DNA of 64,000 nucleotides. Source: Alkalihalophilus pseudofirmus (GTDB lineage: Bacteria; Bacillota; Bacilli; Bacillales; Bacillaceae_D). The stretch covers positions 1,592,001 through 1,656,000 of the forward strand of contig NZ_CP117835.1 of the NCBI RefSeq assembly GCF_029094545.1, read 5' to 3'. The notes under the pieces are model-generated. The model made no database searches and had not been told where the DNA came from. It saw only the letters and a list, made by a program, of their open reading frames with translations. The translations under genes were made by a program, and so were the position numbers. This document shows positions 111 through 39,940 of the stretch, piece by piece. The first letter of the stretch is position 1, and every line of letters begins with the position of its first letter.

Positions 111-851
111 ATGAGTGAACGTATCAAAAAAGTAGAACGAGATTTTTTAGCATATACCAAAAAGATGGAGGATTACGGACAGGCTTTATCTCTCCTAGCT
201 TGGGATGCTAGAACAGGTGCTCCGAAAAAAGGAATTCAGCAGCGTTCAGAAGTGATCGGCACGCTGTCATCAGAGTTGTTTCAATTATCAACATCAGAGG
301 AGATGGCAAGCTTCTTAGGTGAATTACGGGAAGAGGGTGCAAAAGAGCATCTATCAGAAATTACTCTTAAAAGTGTAGAGCAGTGTCATAAAGAATTTGA
401 GCGGAACTTAAAAATCCCAAAAGATGAGTATAAGGAATATGTAATGCTTCAATCGCAGTCAGAATCAATCTGGGAGGAAGCTAAGGACAAAGCTGATTTT
501 GAGATGTTCAAACCGAACTTAGAGAAGCTTGTAGAGTTTAAGAAGCGTTTTGTCGGCTACTTAGGACATAACGGCAACCCATACAATACATTATTAGATG
601 ATTATGAACCAGGTGTATTTGTTGATACGATCGATAAAGTGTTTGGCGAGCTTCGCGATCAGCTGATTCCTCTTGTCAAAGGAGTCACTGAATCAAGCCA
701 TCAGCCAAAGACAGACTTTTTATTTAAAAGCTTTCCTCGTGAAGCTCAACAAGCGTTAAGTAAAGATATTTTAAAGGAAATCGGATATGACTTTGGGGCA
801 GGACGTTTAGATGAAACCGAGCGAACTATAGACACTAAAATTAATTCGTGA
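111..851 (+). pseudogene. ypwA: 5' fragment of M32 carboxypeptidase, interrupted by prophage
   Basis: The N-terminal ~236 residues look like a thermostable M32 carboxypeptidase (YpwA/Taq type), a roughly 500-residue cytoplasmic metallopeptidase. From residue 237 (ERTIDTKINS) the sequence no longer resembles the family, and translation stops at 851. The HEXXH zinc motif lies later in the family and is absent, so this fragment cannot be an active peptidase. The start is supported by a GAAAGGTGG ribosome site just upstream; a TATAAT-like hexamer at 65-70 may be its -10. I infer that the rest of the gene lies beyond the other prophage end, outside the window. Confidence 0.85.
803..825. other. Probable prophage attachment junction (attL)
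   Basis: Similarity to the host carboxypeptidase stops after residues GRLDET (codon 236, positions 816-818), and the serine recombinase gene starts about 85 bp further on. The crossover core should lie within or just before this point. Serine recombinase cores are very short, so the exact bases cannot be fixed without attR or an uninterrupted host gene. Confidence 0.6.
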
Positions 852-2982: not shown

Positions 2983-4125
2983 TTAAGTGGGGATATTACT
3001 ATTAATATTTAATGATTCATCTAGTATTTCCTCAATATTATTATAATCTAAATAAGGAATCCTTATTAATTTTAAATTATTTTCAAGGCAGTAATTCGTT
3101 TTTATTTCATCATTTCTTTTAGTCTTAATAAATGAGGCTTGTCCTCCCCATATGTCTCGTGGTTCAAAGTGCTGTATTCCATCATATTCAATTAAGAAGG
3201 CTAGATTGCCTTGTTTATCAAATATAGCAAAATCAAAAGGTAGTGGTAATACGTTTCTACATTCATTTAATTTGAATTGAGATAAATAACTAATATCATT
3301 TGCTTCTAGATATTTAGATATTCTATTCTCTCCTTTTGATATGGTTTTACACTTGGGACATCTTTGACCGCTTAGAAACTTTGCGGGAGATACAAAATAT
3401 TCATGATTTTTACATTCTGGTGAATTGTGCTTCATAAGTATTTTAACATCTCTGCTTATATATTCTCCTAAAACTGTATATTCATTTTGAACTTGGTCTT
3501 GCACCTCAGATAGGTAGTCTTCCAAGCTTCTTTTATACATATTACTGCATTTGGGGCAGCTACCCAATCCCCTAGAAAAAGTATTTGGTACAACCTCCCA
3601 TTCGTATCCACAAGTTGTATGCTTCATTGATACGTGCTCATGTGAGACAGTGTACTCACTTAAAACTTGATACTCACTACCATATTTACTTTCAAGCTCA
3701 TGAACAAAATTTTCATGGCTTTTTCTTTTTTTGAGGCTTATTTCTTTACCCTTGCACTTTGGACATCGAGAACCAGACAGGAAAGCGTTCGGTTTAACAG
3801 CGTACTCATGATCACAAACACTATGTTTAATTCTTACTTTTGTCTTTGAGTTAATATAAATATCCATTACCTTATATTCATTACCAACTAAGTCAACAAT
3901 TTCTTTTATGAACATATTATGAGATTTTTTTCTGCCAGAGCAATATGCGCAACAGTCTCGCTCAAATAAAGATTTTGGAGTAATCATATCCACTTCTCCA
4001 CAAACCTTGTGTTTAATTTTTAATTTTGTTTTAATATTTTTATATGTACTTAATATTTCGTATTCACCTTTAAAACATAGATATACTTCATCAACAAATT
4101 CCTCATGCGTCTTCTTTTTTCTCAT
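2983..4125 (-). CDS. Free-standing homing endonuclease, EDxHD (Vsr-like) type
   Basis: A 380-residue protein. Four successive ~65-residue units each end in a zinc-ribbon half (CAYCSG, CPKCKG, CPKCSN, CPKCKT), with the pattern EY.VL..Y....V..KH..C between them. The C-terminal ~110 residues hold LPFDFAIFD, LIEYDGIQHFEP, a KRND.IKT.YC stretch and LIRIPY, resembling the EDxHD nucleases related to I-Bth0305I and Vsr. I use the ATG at 4125; the two upstream ATGs (4146, 4143) lie within a hairpin, and GGAGG sits 11 bp before 4125. It is not inside an intron. It may be a mobile gene inserted beside the recombinase. The nuclease assignment is by motif only. Confidence 0.75.
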   Translation of the reverse strand: MRKKKTHEEFVDEVYLCFKGEYEILSTYKNIKTKLKIKHKVCGEVDMITPKSLFERDCCAYCSGRKKSHNMFIKEIVDLVGNEYKVMDIYINSKTKVRIKHSVCDHEYAVKPNAFLSGSRCPKCKGKEISLKKRKSHENFVHELESKYGSEYQVLSEYTVSHEHVSMKHTTCGYEWEVVPNTFSRGLGSCPKCSNMYKRSLEDYLSEVQDQVQNEYTVLGEYISRDVKILMKHNSPECKNHEYFVSPAKFLSGQRCPKCKTISKGENRISKYLEANDISYLSQFKLNECRNVLPLPFDFAIFDKQGNLAFLIEYDGIQHFEPRDIWGGQASFIKTKRNDEIKTNYCLENNLKLIRIPYLDYNNIEEILDESLNINSNIPT

Positions 4126-4128
4126 ACT

Positions 4129-4157
4129 AAAAAACACCTCCATCAACTGAAGGTGTT
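4129..4157 (-). terminator. Terminator hairpin that contains the endonuclease ribosome site
   Basis: On the - strand AACACCT (4157-4151) pairs with AGGTGTT (4139-4133), followed by a run of six T (4134-4129). It would terminate transcripts from the gene ending at 4278. The GGAGG ribosome site of the endonuclease gene (4141-4137) overlaps the 3' arm, so folding should reduce its translation on read-through RNA. Confidence 0.6.
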
Positions 4158-16514: not shown

Positions 16515-17314
16515 TTATTCAGAACCAAATGAATATCTAGCTCTAATTTTATAGTTGTATTTTCCTGCATGAGAAGATGAAGGTACGTTAACTCGTAAAT
16601 CTAACTCAACAAAGTTATCTGTGTTAATGTCAGTGCCATCATTGATTGCACCGCTAATCTTATATTCATTAGGAGTGAGAGTAGATCCATTAGCTCCTAC
16701 AAAGTGAGAAATCTCTTGATAGTCAGAGAGGATAGGATCGTAAGTTGCACCGATAGGAGTAAAATCATCCTCTTCTGCTGAAACGTTCTGAATCTCAGTC
16801 CATTGACCTTCAACAACCTCACTAGAAAAAGGAACGCCCGACATACCCCCGTCTGTATCTTTTGCATTATGTTCACATAGGATCGCTAACCCTATGCCGC
16901 TAATAGTAGCAGCTTATGCTTTCACATAAGAGCAGACCATATCAAAATCCTATAAAGGATTCTACCTGTTTCCACTCGCTTGAGTGTACTCCCTAAAGGG
17001 ATGGTCGTTGCACGTTCCTGTGTAAAACAGGCTTCGCTCAGGATTGTCATATGCAATTTGCACTTAGAGTTTCCCTGAATTAAGGTAGTTTCGATATATC
17101 ATTACTGATATAAAGCCCCATTAAATAAGGTGATTCGACACTGAAGCATATCATATGTATCTTCGCTACCCTCTCTATTATTCCATAGGTAATAAGTATA
17201 TGTATTACTGATTGAGCCTGCATCAACTACTGAAAAGTCTGCCAGTGCTGCATCTTCAAATTCACCGAGGTCATTCTTAGTACACCAACTTACAATAGGT
17301 GCGTTTGTTGACAT
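16515..17314 (-). CDS. Tail protein gene interrupted by a group I intron (two exons)
   Basis: Two open frames form one gene. Exon 1 is 17314-17110 and exon 2 is 16858-16515. Removing the intron (17109-16859) joins GCT TTA T with AT ACA GAC to read ALY-TDGGMSG and gives a continuous 182-residue protein. Without splicing, translation stops three codons after the junction region (ALYQ*). The product looks beta-rich, with an Ig-like C-terminal half ending in KIRARYSFG. Its position between tail-fibre genes suggests a tail or baseplate component. The exact splice position is inferred from P1 pairing and frame. Confidence 0.75.
16859..17109 (-). ncRNA. Group I intron, 251 nt, no ORF
   Basis: On the - strand the conserved P7 elements are present: GTGCAACGACCATCCC (R) and GATATGGTCTGCTC (S). 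A P-like segment (AGGGAAACTCTAAGTGC) and a Q-like segment (GACAATCCTGAGCGAAGCC) precede them. The 5' site follows a T whose flanking UUAU can pair with GUAA in the intron, leaving a U.G pair; the intron ends in G (AAAAG). It is too small for an endonuclease gene. It belongs to the same sequence group as tape measure introns 2 and 3. Confidence 0.85.
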
Positions 17315-28576: not shown

Positions 28577-28607
28577 AAAAGCCATAGCATTATCGCTTAT
28601 GGCTTTT
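28577..28607 (-). terminator. Terminator overlapping the tape measure stop codon
   Basis: AAAAGCCATA and TATGGCTTTT pair around a 10-nt loop; the TAA stop (28592-28590) lies inside the loop region. On the - strand a T-rich tract follows. Confidence 0.6.
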
Positions 28608-31600
28608 CGTAAGATGTTTAATTTGTGATAAGAAGTTCTCAGCATTGTCTGTTTTAATTGTGAAGTCCTTTAAATGGTAATGATTTTCTGTGATAGGCTG
28701 AAGCATTTGTGCGCTCACAGGTTTAATTGAACCCATTAATTTTTGTAGGTTAGGGGCAGCAAACTTCGCTAAATTGTCTTGTGGCGAATATAGTTCATTG
28801 TTTAGAGCTTTGATGACCGTCTCATTGGCATTTGTATTTAGTAGTTTATTCATTAACTCTGTAAACTTATTAGGTTTACTGTCACCAACGATACCACCTG
28901 TATGATAAGCCTTTAAGCCATCAGAAGTGTGCCATGTTCCTGTTCCACTATTGTATGATAGCCCTAAATTTTTTCCTATTTGTTGATTTTCCGCAGCTAA
29001 CCTATCTTTTTCGGCTTGATTTGTTGTATTAGCCCAAGCTTGACTGTTTTGTTTCATTTGGTCTATACCAGTAGGAGAAGAATTACCCCCATTTGATGGG
29101 CTACTACCTGCTGACCCTCCTGAGACATTAGGCGCAGAAAGTTGCATATTACCTAAAGACCTAAAGGCTTGCACGATTTCATTGATTTGCTTCTGAACAT
29201 CGTTTCCAAACTCGCCTAAACTTAATAGCGTATCAGCGTAGAAAGTTTCCATTAGCGCATCGAAATCTTTAGTTCCTTTTTGAACTTCTTTAATTAATTC
29301 ATCCCATTGCTTACCTGTTTCTTCAAGATGTTTGTTTTGAAGTTGCTGTAATTGATTAAGTTTATCACTTGTGTCTGCAACTAGCCCATTATATAGAGTA
29401 TTAAGAGCATTCTTTTGGAGATTTAGCTCTGCAATTTCTTGTTGATGAATATTCTTTGTCTTGTCGAGTTTGTTTTGCATCTCGTTAATTTCATCTTGCA
29501 TTGCTTCACGAATATCGTCACGTTCATACTGTTCAAGAAGCTCATCTCGTTGTTTCTCTAACTCTTTCAGTCTACCCTTGTCATAGGTAAGAATTTCTTC
29601 TCCATCTTCTGTGATATAGGAGAATCGTTTGTCATTTCTTACTTTTTCAATTTCATCTAGAAGTTCTTGCAATCTTTTATTTCGATCAAGTTGTTTTTCT
29701 TCTTTGTCTAGTTGTTGTAGCTGTTCTTGTTTTAATTTAATTTGATTTTGTAGTGAGTCTTCTATCTTTTTGTGGTTTAACTGAGTATCACGTATTTGCT
29801 TATCGAGAGCATCTATTTGATTTTTAATTACATTTGCATAAGCAGATTGCTCTCTGATTAGTTGCTCAAGCTCTTGTTTGTTTTCGCTTGTTTTCTTTGT
29901 CATTAAATCGACTGCATTTGCAATACTAATAATTTCATCTCTTGTCTGAGATAGACTATTTCTTAAATCATATGTAGAGTCTCTAAAGAGAGCATTATTA
30001 ATAAACCTCTCATCAATACGATCTAACTCATAGATTAAGTCATCAATATTATCAAGGAATTCGGTTGTATTGAAGATCTCATCCTTTTTAATGAGTTCTT
30101 CTAACTCTTTATTGAGTTTTTCATAAGCTTTCTGAAGACCTTCTATGTATTGACCTTTTTGCTCCTCAAGTTTTGAACCAATAAAGTCCCTCTGTGCTTG
30201 TCTGACAGACTCAATTTCATGTCTAACATCCCACCAAGCTAACCCTAAATCACTAATCATCTCTTCATATTCTGCAACTTGTGCAGGTGTAAGCATCCCA
30301 CTAGCAATTTGGTCTCTTAAAAAGTTTGCCTGATTGTGAAGAGTTTGTTGTTTATAAGCTAGTTGTGCTAATTGCTTATCAACTCTGTCTGTGTAGTTTT
30401 CTGTTCCTTGGTCTATGTATTGTAATTCGTTTGATAAGCGCTTGACATAGCGATCAATTCCTTGGGTTCTTTTATCAAACTGAGTCATTTTAGCTTCAAT
30501 AAATGCTTCTCTTAATTGAGCTAATCTGTCCACGCCAATTTCTAGCTCATTGTTCACATCGGAGAGAGCAGTTCTAAATTCCTGCATATCCTTAGCGGTT
30601 AATTTCCCACTGTTAATGGCTTTCTCGTACTCTTCTTGCTTTCTGCCAAGCAATCTGTTGTGTTCAGCTATATGTTTACTTTCTTGATCAAGGCTTGCTA
30701 CATATGCATTCGAACCTACTACCAGCTTTTCTCTCTCTCTTTGTAGGCGAGCGATTGAACCTTCTTGCTGATCCATTAAACGCTCTAACTGAGTCATTTT
30801 CTCACGAACACGATCAGCATTTCTTTCAGCCTGTTCTAAAGAGACACCTTCTCTACGTAATCTTGCCTCATCACGCATGACTGAGAATTCATGTCTGCCC
30901 GCCTCAGAAATCTTGGTGCTATTTGAAAATTGACCAGCTTTGTATTGAATCTCATTTAATTGTTTGTCAATTAGAGAGTTTAGATAGTTAATTTGATTTA
31001 GTGCTGCATCACGGTCTTTGTGACCTTCTGGAAGTCTATCAATAATATTTTGCTGTTCTTCGATACTGCGCTCAAGGTGAGCAATTGTTCGTTCATGGTT
31101 ATCGATTAATCCATGAAAATATTCTTCTTGTAATTTTTGTTGTTGCAGGTAGAGGGAGTGTTGTTCAGCTTGCATATCTTCAATAGACTGACCTTGATTG
31201 AATAGTGCTTGTTGATGTTGAGCATAATTACCGATATTGCCCATTTGATTATGTCTTCTTGCGCCTGTATACCTTGAACTCCAATAGCTAGAGTTTAAAT
31301 CTGCTTCTGTCTGTAATCCACTACTTCCCATATGAGTGAATTTCCCATCACCTTTGTAAATACCCACATGAGAAAATTGTTTACCAGTTGTATTGAAGAA
31401 TACTAAATCTCCAGCTTGCAAGTTAGACTTTGATACATTTTGCATGTTTGAGTCATTTGCTTGAAGGTGTGCTGTACGTGGAAGCTTAATACCTAAAAAC
31501 TCATCAAACATTTCTTGAACAAATTGAGAGCAGTCTGCTACGGCACGATTGATGAACTGATCAAAAGTACCATTGAAGTTACCACCAATTTGACCATATC

Positions 31601-34600
31601 TGAAAGTACCACTATTTTGAAATTGTCTGGCTTGGCTAAAAAGAGCATCTAAAGAATTGCTTGAAGCTGGGGCTGAAGCAGCATTAACACTTCCGCCAAA
31701 ATCACGTTGATAACCTAAAACCTTTGGCACATAGTTACGAGTCTCTTTAAAAGGAATGTTACCCCATTGTCCATTTCTTTCCCACTTTTTAACATTTCCC
31801 GCACCTGCATTATAAGCAGCTAATGCTTTTTCGATATCTCCTCCGAATGCCTTAAGCTGCATCGAAAGATAACGAGCACCTGCCATAATATTCTGCTCAG
31901 GATCGTAAGAATTTTTAACACCTAAGCTAGCGGCAGTGGCAGGCATTAATTGCATTAAACCTCTAGCCCCTGCGTGAGAGCGAGCATTAGGGTTGAAATT
32001 TGATTCTGCTTTTATAACTGCTGCGATTAAATTAGGATCGAGACCATACTGACTAGCTGCACGGTTGATGATATCAGAGTATTGACCTGAGTAAGTACCA
32101 CCACTAGCTCTTACGGAAGAGGCAGAAACTACACCACTTTGATAAACTTGCCCCATCTGTTCAAGTCGCTCTAGCTCTTTAATTTGCCTTCCAATTTCTT
32201 CTCGTTTTTCTTTAGTTAAGCGAATTTCTTCCTTCATTGCACGTTGCCAACGAGTAGAACCACGCAGTAAATTATTACGTGCGTTTTGCTGCTTAGACAT
32301 TTCACGATTAAGATCGTCTAAAACTTTTTTGTGCTTATCAGCGAGGAAGATTTCTTTTTCTTTTTCTTTGTTAGCGTCTTTAGTGGCTTTCTCATTGTCT
32401 TTTGTGGCACGAGTATTACGCTCTTTGTAATCTGTATTCTTAGCTAAGGCGTCTGTTGCTTGAGATAAACTAGGGATTTCAAGATCAATTGCCGATTGGA
32501 GGTTTTCAATTGTAGATTGATAGTAGTTGCCAACTGCATTCTGAAACATTGAAACATTACTAGTAACAGGGAGAGAGCCATGTTCAAGTAAGTGATTTAA
32601 TCTATACGCACCTTCACCAGTTCGTTGAATCTCATCTTGAATGTTTTTAGCGATTTCCCTATGAACAGTAGCTAAGCGATTTAATGCATTAATCTCTTCT
32701 TGCATGTGACTAATACGAGCCTTTGTAGAAATAGCAGAAGCTAAGTTACGTGCATCTTGAGAAGATAATTCACCTTTAGCGAGTAGGTCAATAGCATGCT
32801 CAAGAATATCTGCTTGTCTAGCTTCCTCTGCCATTGCATCAATATGTAATTCTGTACCGTTTACTAGGTGAGGGAAGATAGAAGAGAGGTATTCTTTAGT
32901 GTCTGCAAGTTGATTTTCGATGTGGGTTAAATCTTCACCATTGTTAGCTGCTTCTTGAAGAGCCATTGTCAAAACATCATAAGCTGCAATTGCATTGTAA
33001 ACTTCTTCTGTGTTAAGTCGAGTAGAGCCGAGTAGCTGATCGTGAAGAGAGGTGAGTTCTTGTACTTTATCGGCTTGATCGTCTAGGGAGTCGTTGTATG
33101 GTATAATTTGCCCGTTTAGTTCTCGGTAAATTTCAATTCCTTCTTCATTGAGCATATTCAATCGCTCAACGGAAGTTATTGGTATTTTGCCTTCGATATC
33201 CTCAAATAACCCTAATGCTAACTGGTCTTGAAGCTCCTTGAATTCATTTTTTAGAGCTTGAACTAATGAAGATGCATCTGCAAAGCCGACACCTTCCAGT
33301 TTAGAAGCATATGCTTCCCAATCTGTTCCACCTTCTAAAACTTCATTATGTACCGTTTTTAACTCTTCTAACATCTCTTTGGACTCTGCTAATTCAGAAA
33401 GGTTTATATCAAGCTCAATCAAGGATTCTAAGTTGAAATTATTACCAAGCTCACTACGCAACACAGCTAGATTTTCAGCATAATCAAGAACCTCATCGGA
33501 AATGTTGTTTAAGCTTTCTAAATTACCTTTTGCAACTTCAGTCATATCAATCATTTCACTTTTGGTTGATTGGTATTGATCTACTAATAAAAGGTCGCTA
33601 TCGGTAAGTTTTTGTGTAACTTCTTCAAGTTCCATTCTAGCTCTTGCATTATCTCGTGTGGATTCTTCTACACTTAGATTGACTAGCTTTATCTTATGCT
33701 CAGCGCTTTCTAAGTCTCTTTCGAGCTTAATTATTTCCCTTTCTATCTCTTCATCTGAATATCCTCTAAGAGTCTTTAAAGATCGAACAAAACCATCATC
33801 ATCATACTTTGCAAGAGTTTTTTGTGCTTTTTCGTACTCTTTCTGATAATCTTTTAAGTCCTCAATATGACTATCGATATCATCACCAAAACCCGCTACG
33901 GTTTCTTGATTCTCTAACTGTCTTAGTCTTTCAAGGTGTTTCACTTCAAGCTCAATCGCTTCCGCAGATCTTAGATGAGACTGACCCTTTTCATCAATAC
34001 GAGAGGTGAATTGGGGCATCAGCTCATTTAAATCGTTGGAAACTTCGAGTAACCTGTCACTTTCTTCTTGAGTTAATTTGGTTTTAGATGAAAGCTCAAC
34101 ATATTCACCAGATAAGCTTTTAATTCTTGAACTATTCTCACTAAATGATTTTTGCTGTTCCTTTAAGTTTTCTTCAAACTTATTAGTCTCTTCTCTTGCT
34201 TCGGCAAAATTTGTTATTAATTTCTCTAGCCCATATCCTATCGCTACAAGTCCTGCCCCAACAACAGTTGAAGCAAGTAAGCCTCTAAGTGCTACCTTTA
34301 CTCCAGTGATAGCTTTAGCTAACAAGCCTTTTGCAACAGTCAAAGCTCTTGTTGAAGTGAGTAAAGTAGTATTATGTAGGACAGCTTGTTTTTTCACTAT
34401 ATTTGAAGATGACAGAGAGGCTGTGTTTTTATTGATGGAAGCAGTTAGAGCCGCTTTACTTACAGTAAGGTGCTGATTGGTTCTAGATGCCTCAACAGTT
34501 GCTCTGCTGTACTTTCTAGAAGATTGAGACAATAGCTCTGTAGTAGTTTGAGCTTTAAATCCTTCGGCAACAAAGTTTGATAGGTGTCTGTTTAGCAATA

Positions 34601-37600
34601 AGATTAAAGGAGATGTAGCACTTAAAATTACTGGTAGCGCACCCATTGTGTCAATTAATTGTGTGACTGCTTGAATAGCATTCGTCACTACAGTTACAAA
34701 CGCAACTATAGCGTCATCAGCAAAAGATTCTCCAATTGAGACATAAGCTGCTGTTATACTATTGCGCATTTTATTAATTTTTGCTTCCCTTTTTACCCCA
34801 TCTTTCGATGTACTTTAACACTTATTTAAAAGTGGGAGTAGACTATACAATCACCTTAATTAAGGTGCGGATATGGTAGTCGTTGAGGGTCTATCATAGC
34901 ACAGCCTTAGATAGTTCCCTGCTTATTGTCCATTATTATAGCGGTTAGTTTTTGACGTACGCCATCCCTATGCTTTTTTCTGCCTTTCGGCTACATTCAC
35001 GAATATCTTTTCAGATTGCGTTTTAGTGTATAGGGCTTTAGGATTTTCAAGCATTTAAATCCGTTATTCAACCTACATTTCTGCAAGAGGGCACTAAAGT
35101 TAATGCGAGTCTAAATATCTCTCATTTTCATTTAAAGCTGAATTGTGAGAGTTGAGTGCTGCACCAGTAGCGTTTTGAGCTTCTGAGTATTGTTGCATCA
35201 AGGTTAGGAATCGGCTGAGTTGGAAGCGCCCAGCTAATTGAAGAGACAGGTTCTGTTGTTGTTCTGAGTTTAGATTTCCCCAATTATTTCCAAGGTCATC
35301 AAGAATATCGCCTACATTGCGTAGCTGACCCATAGAATCGTAAACTGCCACACCTGCAGCCTCTAAACCTTCAATGCTGCCATTCATAGTTGTTATTCTA
35401 GAATAGATAGTTTTCAAGCTATTCCCTAAAATATTTCCGGATTCTCGTGTTACTTGACCTCATTTATACCGTCTCTTTCGAGATACTTTAACACTTAGAA
35501 GAGTCGGATTAGACCATATCTTTACCCTTACAGTAGTTGTAATAGGGCAGTCAGCACTTCCAAACTACGAGTTTCACGTAGAATGTACTCCATAAAGGAT
35601 GGTCGTTACACCTTCAAAGATTTGCATCTAAGCTTGGCACGGTATTACCATATTATCTAAATATAACTTAGGCTTCCACCGTTAGCACATTTAAAATGCA
35701 CACCCTGCATTTGCAGGTTCACTGACTTTTTTCATTTTGTATTACTACAAAAGGCGACAATTTTATCGCTGTGGCATGTCCTACGAGTTGCTCCATTTCT
35801 ACACCAAAAGTATTCGCCGCTCCCGTTTTAGTCGCTTATTTCTAAACGCACAGACTATATCATTACCGTAAATTTATTTGACGGTATTCGGCACTTCGAT
35901 TAGTAACTCATCATCTAACCTACTCCCAAAGGGATAGTCGTTGCACCTTCCTCGTTTTGAGGCTTGGCACAGGATTGTCATATGGTTTTAAACCACTTAG
36001 ATTTCCCTGTTAGCATGTCTATCCACTGTCATTTCCTACAGCTACTTTATAAGTTAGACACACACCCTTGAGTAATAAGGTTCACCGAATTTTCTATATA
36101 ATGTTTCCATTATTAGGGGCTAAATTTAACCCGCCTTCTGAATACTTTGAGCAAGGTGTTCAGTTGTAATCGCAAAATTGTTCCTTTTTACCCTGTATTT
36201 CTACATATTTATGTAGGGAGTAGACTATACCATTAACTCATTCTAAGAGTTACCGATTGGTAGTCGTTGAGAGCTTTCCATATCAATTTATTGACTTAGG
36301 ACTATCTCTGCTGATTGCCCAATCTAATCAATTTTCAGATGCAGGATATATTTCTATAAGCCTGCTACTATGATTAGCTCTAAGGGGTTTCCAGCATATT
36401 CTCGGTTTTCTTATAATGTCACCACTATAAGGGACTTTTACAAATCCACTTCGTTCAATGCGTCTACAACTCGCATGCTTTCTGTTGCTTCAATATTAAA
36501 TACTTTAGTAGCGGCAGTTAATTTACTCATTGATTCTTCTAAGCTCATTGTTGAAACGTTGCTCATGAGAGTAGCCATTTCTGCCATAGAAGTTAACTCA
36601 TCATCACGGAAGCCTTGACGTGCGAAGCCAATGATTGCTTCATTCACCTCTTCTAGTCGATTTCCGAGTCGATCAGCAATTTCAAATGAATTTTGTAAAG
36701 TTTTCTCAATGTCCGCTTCTCCACCTGTAACACGAGAGAGAGTAGTCATTTGTGTATTAATGTCAATGAGCGTTTCTACCAATTCTCTTCCAATTCTTAT
36801 AGGTTGGTAGAAAATAGTAGCCGAAGCCATCCAGATGGGGAATTTTACCAATGCGGTACGCATCATTTCTGTAACACCCATACCAGACTGTTCTAATGCT
36901 CCTGCTGCTGTTTTAGCATTTGCGCTTAATTCAGTGAATTGCATATTCAAGCTACGCATTGCATTTTGTAGGTTAGGTGTAGATGTGCTTAAAGCTCTAA
37001 CTTGACTTTGATATGCCCTTAATCCTGCATCATCTACAGTAGTACCATGTGTTCGCCTTATATTTTGAACATTAACTTGTGCTTGACGTTGGTATAAGGC
37101 AAGTTGTCGCTGAAGCTCTGCAGTTTTCTCTCGCTCTTTTCGTGCAGCCTCTTCAACTAATCTTCTAGTTTGTTGCTCATATCTTAGATTTCTTTCACGG
37201 GCATTGGCTTCCTGCTGGCTTCTTTGTTGAATGGCTTGTCTAGTAGCTTGCTCATATCTTAGATTTCTTTCACGTTCAGCTTGTTGTTGCTTGTTTAGGT
37301 TATATCGAATTTTTTGCTCTTCTTGAAGTGCTCTCTCACGTTGTTTATCTAGTTGAATAGACTGGTCGGCAAATTGCTTTGCATCCCTACTTGCCTCACG
37401 AACTGACTGAGAGGTTTGAGACATTGCACCTACTGTTCCTCTAGCCTTCTTTTCAATCTCCTCGAATGCTCCACCTATACCCTCATAATGAGTCCTAGCT
37501 ACTTTTACACCACTAGGAAGAAGAGCTTCTTCAACTACTTTTCTGGTATTAAGAGCTTGATCTCCAACTGCTTTCATTCTGGTGTTAAACATTTCAATTT

Positions 37601-37751
37601 GCTTTAATGCGTTTTGATCTATGTTTATTTTTAAGTTAAGCTGTTTTCTATTTACAACTTTTTGTAATTGTTTGATTGAAGTATTGATTTCCGAAACAGA
37701 AGCACCTTGATTTATGCCTGCCGTTATGAGAAAGCGAATATCACTACTCAT
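28590..37751 (-). CDS. Tape measure protein with two wall-hydrolase domains, five exons
   Basis: Predicted spliced product of 2,658 residues. Exons: 37751-36444, 36182-36129, 35823-35765, 35460-35103 and 34787-28590. Junction residues read LNEVD/NNFAI, IQKAG/GAANT, HATAI/GQVTR and YLDSH/EAKINK, giving a continuous TP901-type tape measure core. It sets tail length and enters the cell wall at infection. Coiled coils fill much of the length. A lytic transglycosylase (SLT) domain lies near residues 1490-1620 (catalytic Glu in IKAESNFNPN), and an NlpC/P60 domain near 1650-1770 (Cys in ADCSQF, His in FSHVGIY). Hydrophobic segments occur near residues 740-790. Unspliced RNA meets stops right after each 5' splice site. 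SPbeta YomI/CwlP is the likely counterpart. Confidence 0.85.
34788..35102 (-). ncRNA. Group I intron 4 of the tape measure gene, 315 nt
   Basis: P7 elements CCTCAACGACTACC and GTATAGTCTACTCCC are present on the - strand. P1: exon GCAU before the 5' site pairs with GUGC in the intron, leaving U.G at the cut. The 3' end is ...AAAAAGG, and exon 5 starts GAA GCA. No ORF. It shares its R/S elements and 3' end with intron 1. Confidence 0.88.
35461..35764 (-). ncRNA. Group I intron 3 of the tape measure gene, 304 nt
   Basis: P7 elements GTAACGACCATCC and AGATATGGTCTAATCC. P1: exon GCGAU pairs with GUCGC. The intron ends ...AAATG and the next exon starts AGGTCAAG, so it falls inside an Ile codon (AT|A). 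No ORF. Closest in its core to the 17-kb intron and intron 2. Confidence 0.88.
35824..36128 (-). ncRNA. Group I intron 2 of the tape measure gene, 305 nt
   Basis: P7 elements GTGCAACGACTATCCC and GATATAGTCTGTGCG. P1: exon GGGU pairs with GCCC. The 3' end is ...AAAACG and exon 3 starts GGA GCG. A GACAATCCTGTGCCAAGCC segment matches the Q region of the 17-kb intron. No ORF. Confidence 0.88.
36183..36443 (-). ncRNA. Group I intron 1 of the tape measure gene, 261 nt
   Basis: The clearest of the set: a P element (GCTGGAAACCCCTTAGAGC), a Q element (GGGCAATCAGCAG), R (CTCAACGACTACC) and S (TATAGTCTACTCCC) in the right order. P1: exon GGAU pairs with GUCC. The 3' end is ...AAAAAGG and exon 2 starts AAC AAT. 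No ORF. Confidence 0.9.
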
Positions 37752-38299: not shown

Positions 38300-39940
38300 T
38301 CAACTTACAATCTTATCAATTTTAGAACTTAGCTTTATTTTTAAATTATTTATGTCCTCGGGATATAAAGCAATGAAATGGTATTTATCTAGCGATTCAT
38401 AGAACTCGACTTTTCTTTTTGTTTTATGCTGATACTCTTGCCAAATATCGCCTCTGTCCCCCATTAAACCAAAGTACTCTACTATTATATTGTCATTTAT
38501 AATCCAATCGGGGATATAACTTTCGTTGTGTTTCACATTATGAAATAAATTTCTACTTTTGTAAGTTGGTCTTTTAACTTTATTATATTTTGTTATTAAG
38601 TAATCATGAATAAGTTTCTCAGGTTTAGATAGCAATTTAGTGCCATCAATTGATATATTTTGTTTGTTGAACTTATACTGCGGATATATTAATCCTAGTA
38701 TAAACTCTGAGTCATACATTGAATATAGAGTAGTCAAAGAGTAAGCTTCAAAGAAATCCTTAAGTCTGATATTATGAAGTTCGCTAACCGAATTAACCTC
38801 TCCAGATTCTATTATTTTATTCACAAGCCATTCATATGCCTCTCTAACATTTTTGGGATCACTCCAGTACTTCTGAGGGACTCTAGTAATCTCCCAATGT
38901 TTCCATTTGTTAGGGAATTTATAATTTACGGCAGAATATATCGATAAATTAAAACAGTGAGTTAAGAAGGAGAGGAGTCCATATCTTTCGAACAATTCTC
39001 TGCTAATAACTTTTGGTACGTCATCCTCGGTTTTAATAACTCCGTCTTTGTGTAGCTCATCAAAAAACCAAGTTAACACCTTTTCTTTACTTAGTTCATT
39101 TTTATAAAAGTTTTTATGAACAGGAAGATTCCACTCTTTAAATGTTTCGGGATATGCTGTAATCAACACTTTAGAAAAAGACCCGCTATAATAAGTAATC
39201 AAAGAGCCTAATCCATAATCTGAAAGAATCTTTTTCATTCCCTTAAACCGAGCAATATCCTCGAATTTCTCTATTCTTTCATCTTTAATCATTTCTTCTA
39301 TGAGCCAATCCACCGCCCATTTTACATTATCTATGTTTCTCCAAAAGTTTTTAGGAACTCTGTTGAATTTCCAAGGCTCGAACTCTCCATTGAAAGCACT
39401 GGTTAAAATATCTGAAAGACCAAAACTATCTGAAATAGGTGTTAGTCTGTATTTTAAAAATGCTTTTTTATCCACCATCTTAGGAACATCTTGTAACGAT
39501 TTTAATTCATTTGCATCAATCATCATTTCCACCATATGTGAGACTAAGCTTTTTGCCTCTTCGAGAGTTATGTTGCTAAAGTAGCAATTTGGAAAGGTTT
39601 TGCGTTTTCCACTTAGAATTTCTTTATAGATGGACAGTTTATCCAACTCTTTACCACGTTTAATCATATTTAACCCGTTTAACTTATCCTTGCAATTTTT
39701 ACAGTTAATTTTAATATTATTGTTAATTCGATATTTATATGTGTCATTTCTAGTACTGAATTTAACTCTACAATTATCGCAATATACATCGATAACGTGT
39801 TTGGTCTGATCGGTTAGATGTAAAGCGTCTACTTCAAATTCTTCGAACATCTTTGTAAATTTATACCCTAAAGATAAAAAATGTTGCTTGTTCTTTGAGC
39901 CCCACTTCACCTTAATCTTCTGATTTTCTACAATCGCCAT
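38300..39940 (-). CDS. Putative Vsr/PD-(D/E)XK-like free-standing endonuclease
   Basis: A 546-residue protein. An N-terminal zinc ribbon (YCDNCRVKFST ... NCKNCKDKL, about residues 50-85) is followed by three to four ~85-residue helical repeats recognisable by W/F...NV..A..WL..E.I and YGL.SL patterns. The C-terminal ~110 residues have EKLIHDYL, PDWIINDNIIVEYFG, a KTKRKVEFY helix and FIALYPEDI, which looks like a Vsr-type or PD-(D/E)XK nuclease core. DNA-binding repeats plus a nuclease suggest a homing endonuclease. It lies two genes upstream of the four-intron tape measure gene. Assignment by motif only. Confidence 0.6.
   Translation of the reverse strand: MAIVENQKIKVKWGSKNKQHFLSLGYKFTKMFEEFEVDALHLTDQTKHVIDVYCDNCRVKFSTRNDTYKYRINNNIKINCKNCKDKLNGLNMIKRGKELDKLSIYKEILSGKRKTFPNCYFSNITLEEAKSLVSHMVEMMIDANELKSLQDVPKMVDKKAFLKYRLTPISDSFGLSDILTSAFNGEFEPWKFNRVPKNFWRNIDNVKWAVDWLIEEMIKDERIEKFEDIARFKGMKKILSDYGLGSLITYYSGSFSKVLITAYPETFKEWNLPVHKNFYKNELSKEKVLTWFFDELHKDGVIKTEDDVPKVISRELFERYGLLSFLTHCFNLSIYSAVNYKFPNKWKHWEITRVPQKYWSDPKNVREAYEWLVNKIIESGEVNSVSELHNIRLKDFFEAYSLTTLYSMYDSEFILGLIYPQYKFNKQNISIDGTKLLSKPEKLIHDYLITKYNKVKRPTYKSRNLFHNVKHNESYIPDWIINDNIIVEYFGLMGDRGDIWQEYQHKTKRKVEFYESLDKYHFIALYPEDINNLKIKLSSKIDKIVS

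What the first reader, a model, noticed from the sequence alone, without database searches (positions are those of the whole stretch)
34788..36443. Four group I introns in one phage gene, the tape measure
Between two long open frames of the tape measure lie four segments with group I core motifs (R: CAACGACYAYCC; S: TATRGTCT). Each starts after a U that forms a U.G pair with an internal guide and ends in G. Removing all four restores a continuous TP901-type core (LNEVD-NNFAI, IQKAG-GAANT, HATAI-GQVTR, YLDSH-EAKINK) and a 2,658-residue frame. The highest number I recall for a single phage gene is three (Twort). The virion gene therefore depends on four splicing events in about 2.1 kb.
Basis: partly seen in the sequence, partly recalled or inferred. 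Interest (0 to 1): 0.92.

Follow-up and report, generated by a model that had tools for sequence, protein, structure and literature searches.

The report
Four introns in a tail-ruler gene
A dormant bacterial virus carries four predicted self-splicing RNA inserts inside the gene that sets its tail length, and related viruses carry such inserts in the same stretch again and again, which makes this gene part an unusually crowded landing site for them.

Summary
On the minus strand, 34788-36443 contains four group I introns (261, 305, 304, 315 nt) in a prophage tape measure gene; both outer coordinates are exact. All four match Rfam Intron_gpI, two above and two below the curated cut-off but significant. 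Each follows a U with a U.G P1 and ends in G. Joined exons give 2,658 residues. Intron-free homologues such as SPbeta YomI read through all four junctions.

Four is not unique. A splice-aware survey of 91 other distinct tape measure cores found introns in 29: 14 with one, 8 with two, 4 with three, 3 with four. Rfam matched 26 of the 41 tested. The four-intron genes are not sisters on the tree. Unrelated introns share a site, and sites lie at conserved residues.

Published phage genes that I found reach three introns, including the RT-PCR-proven tape measure gene of Vibrio phage ICP1. So this is a new member of a known kind, with a higher count and a strong hot spot. Splicing is inferred, not shown. 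A fifth intron lies at 16876-17126.

The parts
36444..37751 (-). tape measure exon 1 (436 codons, intron follows codon 436)
   Evidence: phrog_4211 4.7e-55; PhageMin_Tail 31.4 bits against a cut-off of 33.2
36183..36443 (-). intron I1, group I, 261 nt, splice GTGGAT^TTG...AAGG^AACAAT
   Evidence: RF00028 62.2 bits; P1 GGAU/GUCC, P7 GACUA/UAGUC; intron at the same site with 75.8% identity over 227 nt in L167
36129..36182 (-). tape measure exon 2 (54 nt)
   Evidence: covered by intron-free homologues
35824..36128 (-). intron I2, group I, 305 nt, splice GCGGGT^TAA...AACG^GGAGCG
   Evidence: RF00028 64.5 bits; P1 GGGU/GCCC, P7 GACUA/UAGUC
35765..35823 (-). tape measure exon 3 (59 nt)
   Evidence: covered by intron-free homologues
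35461..35764 (-). intron I3, group I, 304 nt, phase 2, splice GCGAT^AAA...AATG^AGGTCA
   Evidence: RF00028 35.9 bits, under the cut-off of 50, E 1.7e-5 in the whole-window search; P1 GCGAU/GUCGC, P7 GACCA/UGGUC
35103..35460 (-). tape measure exon 4 (358 nt)
   Evidence: phrog_4211 1.5e-46
34788..35102 (-). intron I4, group I, 315 nt, splice TCGCAT^TAA...AAGG^GAAGCA
   Evidence: RF00028 43.1 bits, under the cut-off of 50, E 1.2e-7 in the whole-window search; P1 GCAU/GUGC, P7 GACUA/UAGUC
28590..34787 (-). tape measure exon 5, with SLT transglycosylase and NlpC/P60 domains
17127..17314 (-). exon 1 of a second intron-bearing prophage gene (phrog_11814)
16876..17126 (-). fifth group I intron (I5), 251 nt
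   Evidence: RF00028 82.3 bits; P1 CCUU/GGGG, P7 GACCA/UGGUC
16515..16875 (-). exon 2 of the second intron-bearing gene; joined product 182 aa
   Evidence: of 13 phage records that match the joined protein, 11 cover at least 80% of it in one place
38300..39940 (-). free-standing gene upstream of the tape measure gene with a homing-endonuclease-like N-terminus; possible mobility factor (a guess)
   Evidence: phrog_12131 1.4e-7 over residues 7-101 of 546; no Pfam family

Best explanation
The tape measure gene of a large prophage (its tape measure protein is related to that of SPbeta, but it also has a tail sheath gene) is interrupted by four ORF-less group I introns within 1.66 kb of its conserved core. 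In the transcript each intron folds, pairs the end of its upstream exon with its internal guide (P1, U.G at the cut), is cut there with the help of a guanosine bound in P7, and the exons are joined after its terminal G; four such events give a 2,658-residue protein. By sequence the four fall in three groups, so they most likely arrived separately rather than by duplication in place. They belong to a hot spot: related phages have inferred group I introns at 20 positions in the same 300 codons, two of which are also used in the window, and some carry homing-endonuclease-like genes. Shown: the sequences, structure matches, sites, frame and intron-free homologues. Inferred: splicing in the cell, the chemistry (established for the family), the order of events, and homing as the way of arrival.
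For: RF00028 hits for all four. P1 with U.G, terminal G and a complete P7 in all four; I3 has a compensatory P7 pair, C-G for U-A. Covariation in relatives: 32 of 52 predicted pairs in the I2/I3 group (9 sequences) and 35 of 70 in the I1 group (5 sequences) have at least one double change that keeps the pair. Joined frame of 2,658 residues. Intron-free homologues run through all junctions. Splice-aware alignment recovers the four introns with the window left out of the profile. The I1 site is occupied by an intron in Geobacillus virus E3, L024, L167 and L169. Four distinct four-intron genes, the window's among them, are not sisters.
Against: No RNA data. I3 and I4 are under the Rfam cut-off. 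I1-I4 carry no endonuclease gene, so how they moved is not seen. I4 has no blastn match of 90 nt or more among the 59 introns compared; in the phage collection it matches 48 records (36 Staphylococcus), none over 80% of its length, and I did not check that those stretches are introns. The 3' ends of I3/I4 and I1/I4 share 57-58 nt at 78-79%, so exchange of intron parts is possible. The consensus folds each miss one of the two crossing helices (P7, P3), and no shuffled control of the covariation was run. Whether the prophage can still be induced is unknown.
Confidence: 0.93

Rival explanations
1. The introns are real, but at least one has lost activity, so the prophage is decaying and makes no full-length tape measure protein.
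For: I3 and I4 score under the Rfam cut-off. Prophages often decay (general knowledge).
Against: P1, P7 and the terminal G are intact in all four. The joined frame has no internal stop. Introns that score lower by Rfam (27.6 bits in L154, 30.8 in L167) sit in other genes whose joined cores also have no stops.
Confidence: 0.06
2. The segments are not group I introns but other insertions, frame-shifting decay or an assembly fault, so the gene is simply broken into pieces.
For: A plain ORF list breaks the gene into separate frames.
Against: Four covariance-model hits; exact phase and residue registration at each junction; introns at the I1 site in other phages.
Confidence: 0.01
3. The four introns arose by local duplication of one intron.
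For: I2 and I3 fall in one sequence group and share 102 nt at 71%; I4 shares 57 nt at 79% with I1 and 58 nt at 78% with I3 near the 3' end.
Against: I1, I2/I3 and I4 fall in three groups. I1 is closest to an intron at the same site in L167 (75.8% over 227 nt), and the best matches of I3 are introns at other sites in other phages.
Confidence: 0.05

Closest known systems
Vibrio phage ICP1 tape measure gene (PMC10448857; passages seen)
   Same: A tape measure gene split by several introns; four exons and three introns shown by RT-PCR and Sanger sequencing.
   Different: Three introns, not four; the middle one typically encodes an HNH-3 endonuclease. The passages I saw do not assign the ICP1 introns to group I. 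The protein is too far from this family for a site comparison (aligner score -64, against -146 on the wrong strand and 788 for SPBc2).
Staphylococcus phage Twort orf142 (known here from a title in the reference list and a discussion passage of PMC11878797; original paper not held)
   Same: Three group I introns in one tail gene; exon skipping reported.
   Different: Three introns; a different gene (a tail tube protein according to PMC11878797).
Bastillevirinae DNA polymerase and terminase genes (PMC11878797; abstract, passages and section 15 read)
   Same: Group I introns, up to three per gene; eight of nine tested genes were spliced.
   Different: Genes of DNA synthesis and packaging; 32 of 45 introns carry endonuclease genes. 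I1-I4 here carry none.
Brochothrix phage A9 nrdE (PMC3653736; passages seen)
   Same: Several intervening elements in one phage gene.
   Different: Three introns plus an intein-encoded endonuclease, in ribonucleotide reductase.
Geobacillus virus E3 gp42/gp43 (NC_029073)
   Same: Homologous tape measure gene with a group I intron at exactly the I1 site.
   Different: One intron only in the surveyed core, from another sequence group; annotated as two genes.
Chlamydomonas chloroplast psbA (one sentence in PMC5931967)
   Same: Four group I introns in one protein gene.
   Different: An organelle gene, not a phage gene; so four per gene is a high count for phages only.

Membership tests
Group I intron (RF00028) | covariance-model match over the conserved core | tested here: met
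   4 of 4 significant; 2 of 4 over the gathering score
Group I intron (RF00028) | 5' splice site after a U that forms U.G with the internal guide (P1) | tested here: met
   4 of 4
Group I intron (RF00028) | intron ends in G | tested here: met
   4 of 4
Group I intron (RF00028) | P7 with the guanosine-binding G-C pair | tested here: met
   GACUA/UAGUC in 3 and GACCA/UGGUC in 1 of 4; that this pair binds guanosine is recalled
Group I intron (RF00028) | removal restores the product of intron-free homologues | tested here: met
Group I intron (RF00028) | guanosine-dependent self-splicing | not testable with these tools
   needs RNA work
Group I subgroup IA (usual for phage introns) | P7.1/P7.2 elements between P7 and the 3' strand of P3 | tested here: inconclusive
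   I2, I3 and I5 have an insertion there in the Rfam alignment, I1 and I4 do not; the element names are recalled and no subgroup model was run
Phage tail tape measure protein | match to tape measure profile families on both sides of the introns | tested here: met
   phrog_4211 on exon 1, exon 4 and the first 666 codons of exon 5
Mobile (homing) intron | intron-encoded homing endonuclease | tested here: not met
   longest stop-free run in I1-I4 is 38-53 aa; five long introns of relatives that I looked at do encode endonuclease-like proteins

The most novel reading that the evidence does not exclude
The intron array is used, not merely tolerated. In this gene, skipping exon 2 (54 nt), exons 3+4 (417 nt) or exons 2-4 (471 nt) each keeps the reading frame, so exon skipping of the kind reported for Twort orf142 and the SIOphi polymerase gene (both as told in PMC11878797) could give several tape measure forms or gate tail assembly. 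That would explain why intron-dense tape measure genes recur in separate lineages.
Probability: 0.08. Interest if true: 0.85.

Novelty: new member of a known kind. Interest (0 to 1): 0.6.

Why it matters
Phage group I introns are known mainly from genes of nucleotide and DNA metabolism, and PMC12350094 calls that preference mysterious (section 6 read); a few virion genes are known too (ICP1, Twort, Cluster J mycobacteriophages). Here one virion gene is hit over and over: of 92 distinct tape measure cores (91 surveyed plus this one) 30 carry 58 inferred introns at about 22 positions, up to four at once, with one exon of only 22 nt in L154. Because versions of one gene with none to four introns exist side by side, questions about how such introns arrive, coexist and are spliced in series become testable. 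In practice, tape measure genes annotated as two or more fragments (E3 gp42/gp43) may be intact spliced genes.

Tried and rejected
A genome-wide search with RF00028 returned 2 places and missed three introns that cmscan finds in the window, so it was not used as a count. First searches with exon 1 alone gave one viral contig and matches in 2 of 198 genomes, one of them the window's own. ICP1 tape measure: too distant for mapping sites.

Weak points of the survey. The aligner calls introns in 74 of 175 loci, but 44 calls lie beyond codon 600, where the profile is poorly conserved; none of these 44 has my P7 pattern and all were dropped, leaving 38 of 175 loci with calls at codon 600 or before, near-copies included. 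On the wrong strand it also places introns (four in ICP1, five in SPBc2), with negative scores (-146, -136); counted clusters score 300 or more. Eleven of 102 clusters under 300 were left out, one of which (L172) has a possible intron at 486. Of the 54 counted introns, my simple P7 pattern is found in 30 and a P1 of four or more pairs in 49. Rfam, run on 19 of the 29 intron-bearing relatives with E-value limits of 0.01 to 0.1, matched 26 of their 41 inferred introns (my count; two hits in L104 counted as one intron). It matched none in L024, L097, L102, L106 and L121. Ten loci (L109, L110, L113, L116, L117, L125, L127, L134, L140, L141) were not run. Unmatched introns rest on splice alignment, P1 and, for part of them, sequence kinship. 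Site labels 488.0 and 546.2 (L167) and 552.1 (L113, whose joined stretch has 2 stops) are uncertain and were left out of the conservation test.

Bias: two of the three viral scans behind the survey used queries made mostly of intron-bearing relatives, and the first kept 80 of 148 hits, so 29 of 91 is not an unbiased prevalence. Only codons 301-600 were surveyed.

Literature: searches showed me no phage gene with four group I introns. Most listed papers were not opened. The two hits for 'four group I introns' with 'phage' concern a chloroplast gene and engineered RNAs.

Full report
What was checked. The window lies in a 4.08-Mb contig of a 4.24-Mb genome and holds part of a large prophage: serine recombinase at 903-2519 and portal, tail sheath, tape measure and tail fibre genes. 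The tape measure gene runs on the minus strand from 37751 to 28590.

The four introns. A cmscan of 34600-36600 gives four RF00028 hits on the minus strand: 64.5, 62.2, 43.1 and 35.9 bits. In the whole window their E-values run from 4.5e-14 to 1.7e-5, and the only other hit with E up to 0.05 is a fifth intron, matched at 16913-17137. Fixing the ends by U^...G^ and by the reading frame gives introns of 261, 305, 304 and 315 nt and exons of 1308, 54, 59, 358 and 6198 nt; the joined frame has 2,658 residues and a single stop at its end. Each intron has a P1 with U.G and a P7 helix; I3 carries GACCA/UGGUC where the other three have GACUA/UAGUC, a compensatory change. Alignments with related introns fold into consensus structures in which 32 of 52 pairs (nine sequences, I2/I3 group) and 35 of 70 pairs (five sequences, I1 group) have at least one double change that keeps the pair. 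Each fold misses one of the two crossing helices (P7 in the first, P3 in the second), and no shuffled control was run.

Intron-free homologues. A 240-residue joined stretch over all four junctions matches 85 phage records, 82 of them in one place covering at least 80%, and 11 of 11 matching plasmid records do the same. The 82 include Geobacillus virus E3 and Microcystis phage MaeS, whose matches begin at residues 37 and 34 because their own genes are interrupted there. SPbeta YomI, FADO, phage 949 and vB_BcoS-136 read straight through.

A hot spot in relatives. Searching for the core found 80 (kept of 148) viral loci and 16 bacterial loci; two further scans with a 58-residue exon piece, taken mostly from intron-bearing relatives, added more. 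I wrote a splice-aware protein-to-DNA aligner using a profile of 24 intron-free cores and the window, with T^...G^ ends. It recovers the window's introns exactly, also with the window left out of the profile, and calls none in the intact SPBc2 gene; on wrong strands it does place introns, but with negative scores. Calls beyond codon 600 (44, none with the P7 pattern) were dropped. After merging near-copies and leaving out 11 low-scoring clusters, 91 distinct cores remain: 62 without introns in codons 301-600, 14 with one, 8 with two, 4 with three, 3 with four. With the window this is 30 of 92 genes and 58 introns at about 22 positions, three of them uncertain. Of the 54 introns in relatives, 30 show the P7 pattern and 49 a P1 of at least four pairs. 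Rfam matched 26 of the 41 inferred introns in the 19 intron-bearing relatives on which I ran it. The other four-intron genes are L107 (Paenibacillus sp. Marseille-Q4541), L154 and L167 (IMG/VR); Rfam matches all four introns of L154, three of four in L167 and two of four in L107. In L154 one exon between two introns is 22 nt.

Independent arrival. On a quick maximum-likelihood tree (28 of 88 inner branches weakly supported; the window on a long branch) the four-intron genes need four changes, and starred branches alone force four. Site 486.0 is occupied in 14 cores and needs 13 changes; 434.2 in 9 cores and 8 changes. Among 59 introns grouped by single-linkage blastn, I1 falls in a group of seven with introns at the same site in L167, L169 and L024 and at other sites in L101, L167 and L169; E3, at that same site, falls with I2 and I3; I4 stands alone. 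So introns of different groups share a site, and introns of one group sit at different sites. Nineteen site labels lie beside residues more conserved than random ones (0.66 against 0.50; reached in 1 of 20,000 draws, and in 11 of 20,000 when only codons 430-600 are used). This fits the known habit of such introns to settle in conserved DNA (general knowledge).

Mobility. I1-I4 have no stop-free run longer than 53 codons. Five long introns of relatives encode proteins like HNH or Vsr/DUF559 endonucleases, types described for phage introns in PMC12350094 (section 6 read) and PMC11878797 (section 15 read). A gene just upstream of the window's tape measure gene, 38300-39940, has a homing-endonuclease-like start. 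That it moves any of these introns is a guess.

Comparison with print. ICP1's tape measure gene has four exons and three introns by RT-PCR (PMC10448857, passages). Bastillevirinae polymerase and terminase genes reach three (PMC11878797, section 15). Brochothrix A9 nrdE has three plus an intein (PMC3653736, passages). Twort orf142 has three (title cited in PMC11878797). Outside phages, four in one gene is known, as in a chloroplast psbA (PMC5931967, passage). I saw no report of four in a phage gene in ten searches of an open-licence library; most listed papers were not opened.

Verdict. The introns are ordinary members of a known class. The count exceeds the published phage cases I found, but three other genes in the survey match it. 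The broader result is that the tape measure core is a repeatedly colonised site.

Noticed in passing
window 16876-17126 (-): A fifth group I intron (RF00028 82.3 bits, the best in the window) splits a small prophage gene (phrog_11814); joined product 182 aa, with uninterrupted homologues in phages SP-15, G and Jenst.
   Followed up: yes
window 147-836 (+) and genome C1:1761439-1762245 (+): The prophage (about 168 kb) splits an M32 carboxypeptidase gene: profile positions 3-232 lie on the left side and 221-489 on the right, same strand. A large serine recombinase lies beside the left end (903-2519).
   Followed up: partly
window 2983-4146 (-): A 387-aa protein with DUF4379/CapR-type zinc domains, domains that PMC12350094 describes in a new group of homing endonucleases; possibly a free-standing one. 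A nuclease domain was not seen.
   Followed up: no
L006 6143-13784 (Geobacillus virus E3): Tape measure protein annotated as two genes, gp42 and gp43; they look like two exons around a group I intron at the window's I1 site.
   Followed up: yes
L154 3665-3686: A 22-nt exon between two group I introns that are both matched by Rfam (66.9 and 58.5 bits).
   Followed up: partly
L010 3890-4833 (Microcystis phage MaeS): The endonuclease-like gene inside the tape measure intron is annotated as two overlapping frames and may be degenerate.
   Followed up: no
L124 3207-3462: A group I intron far upstream in the tape measure core (site 307.2), so introns outside codons 301-600 may exist in other genes too.
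   Followed up: partly
L183-L188 (rest of the prophage region in the window's genome): No group I intron over the Rfam cut-off in 107 kb to the right of the window, only one tRNA. At that cut-off weaker introns like I3 and I4 would be missed.
   Followed up: partly
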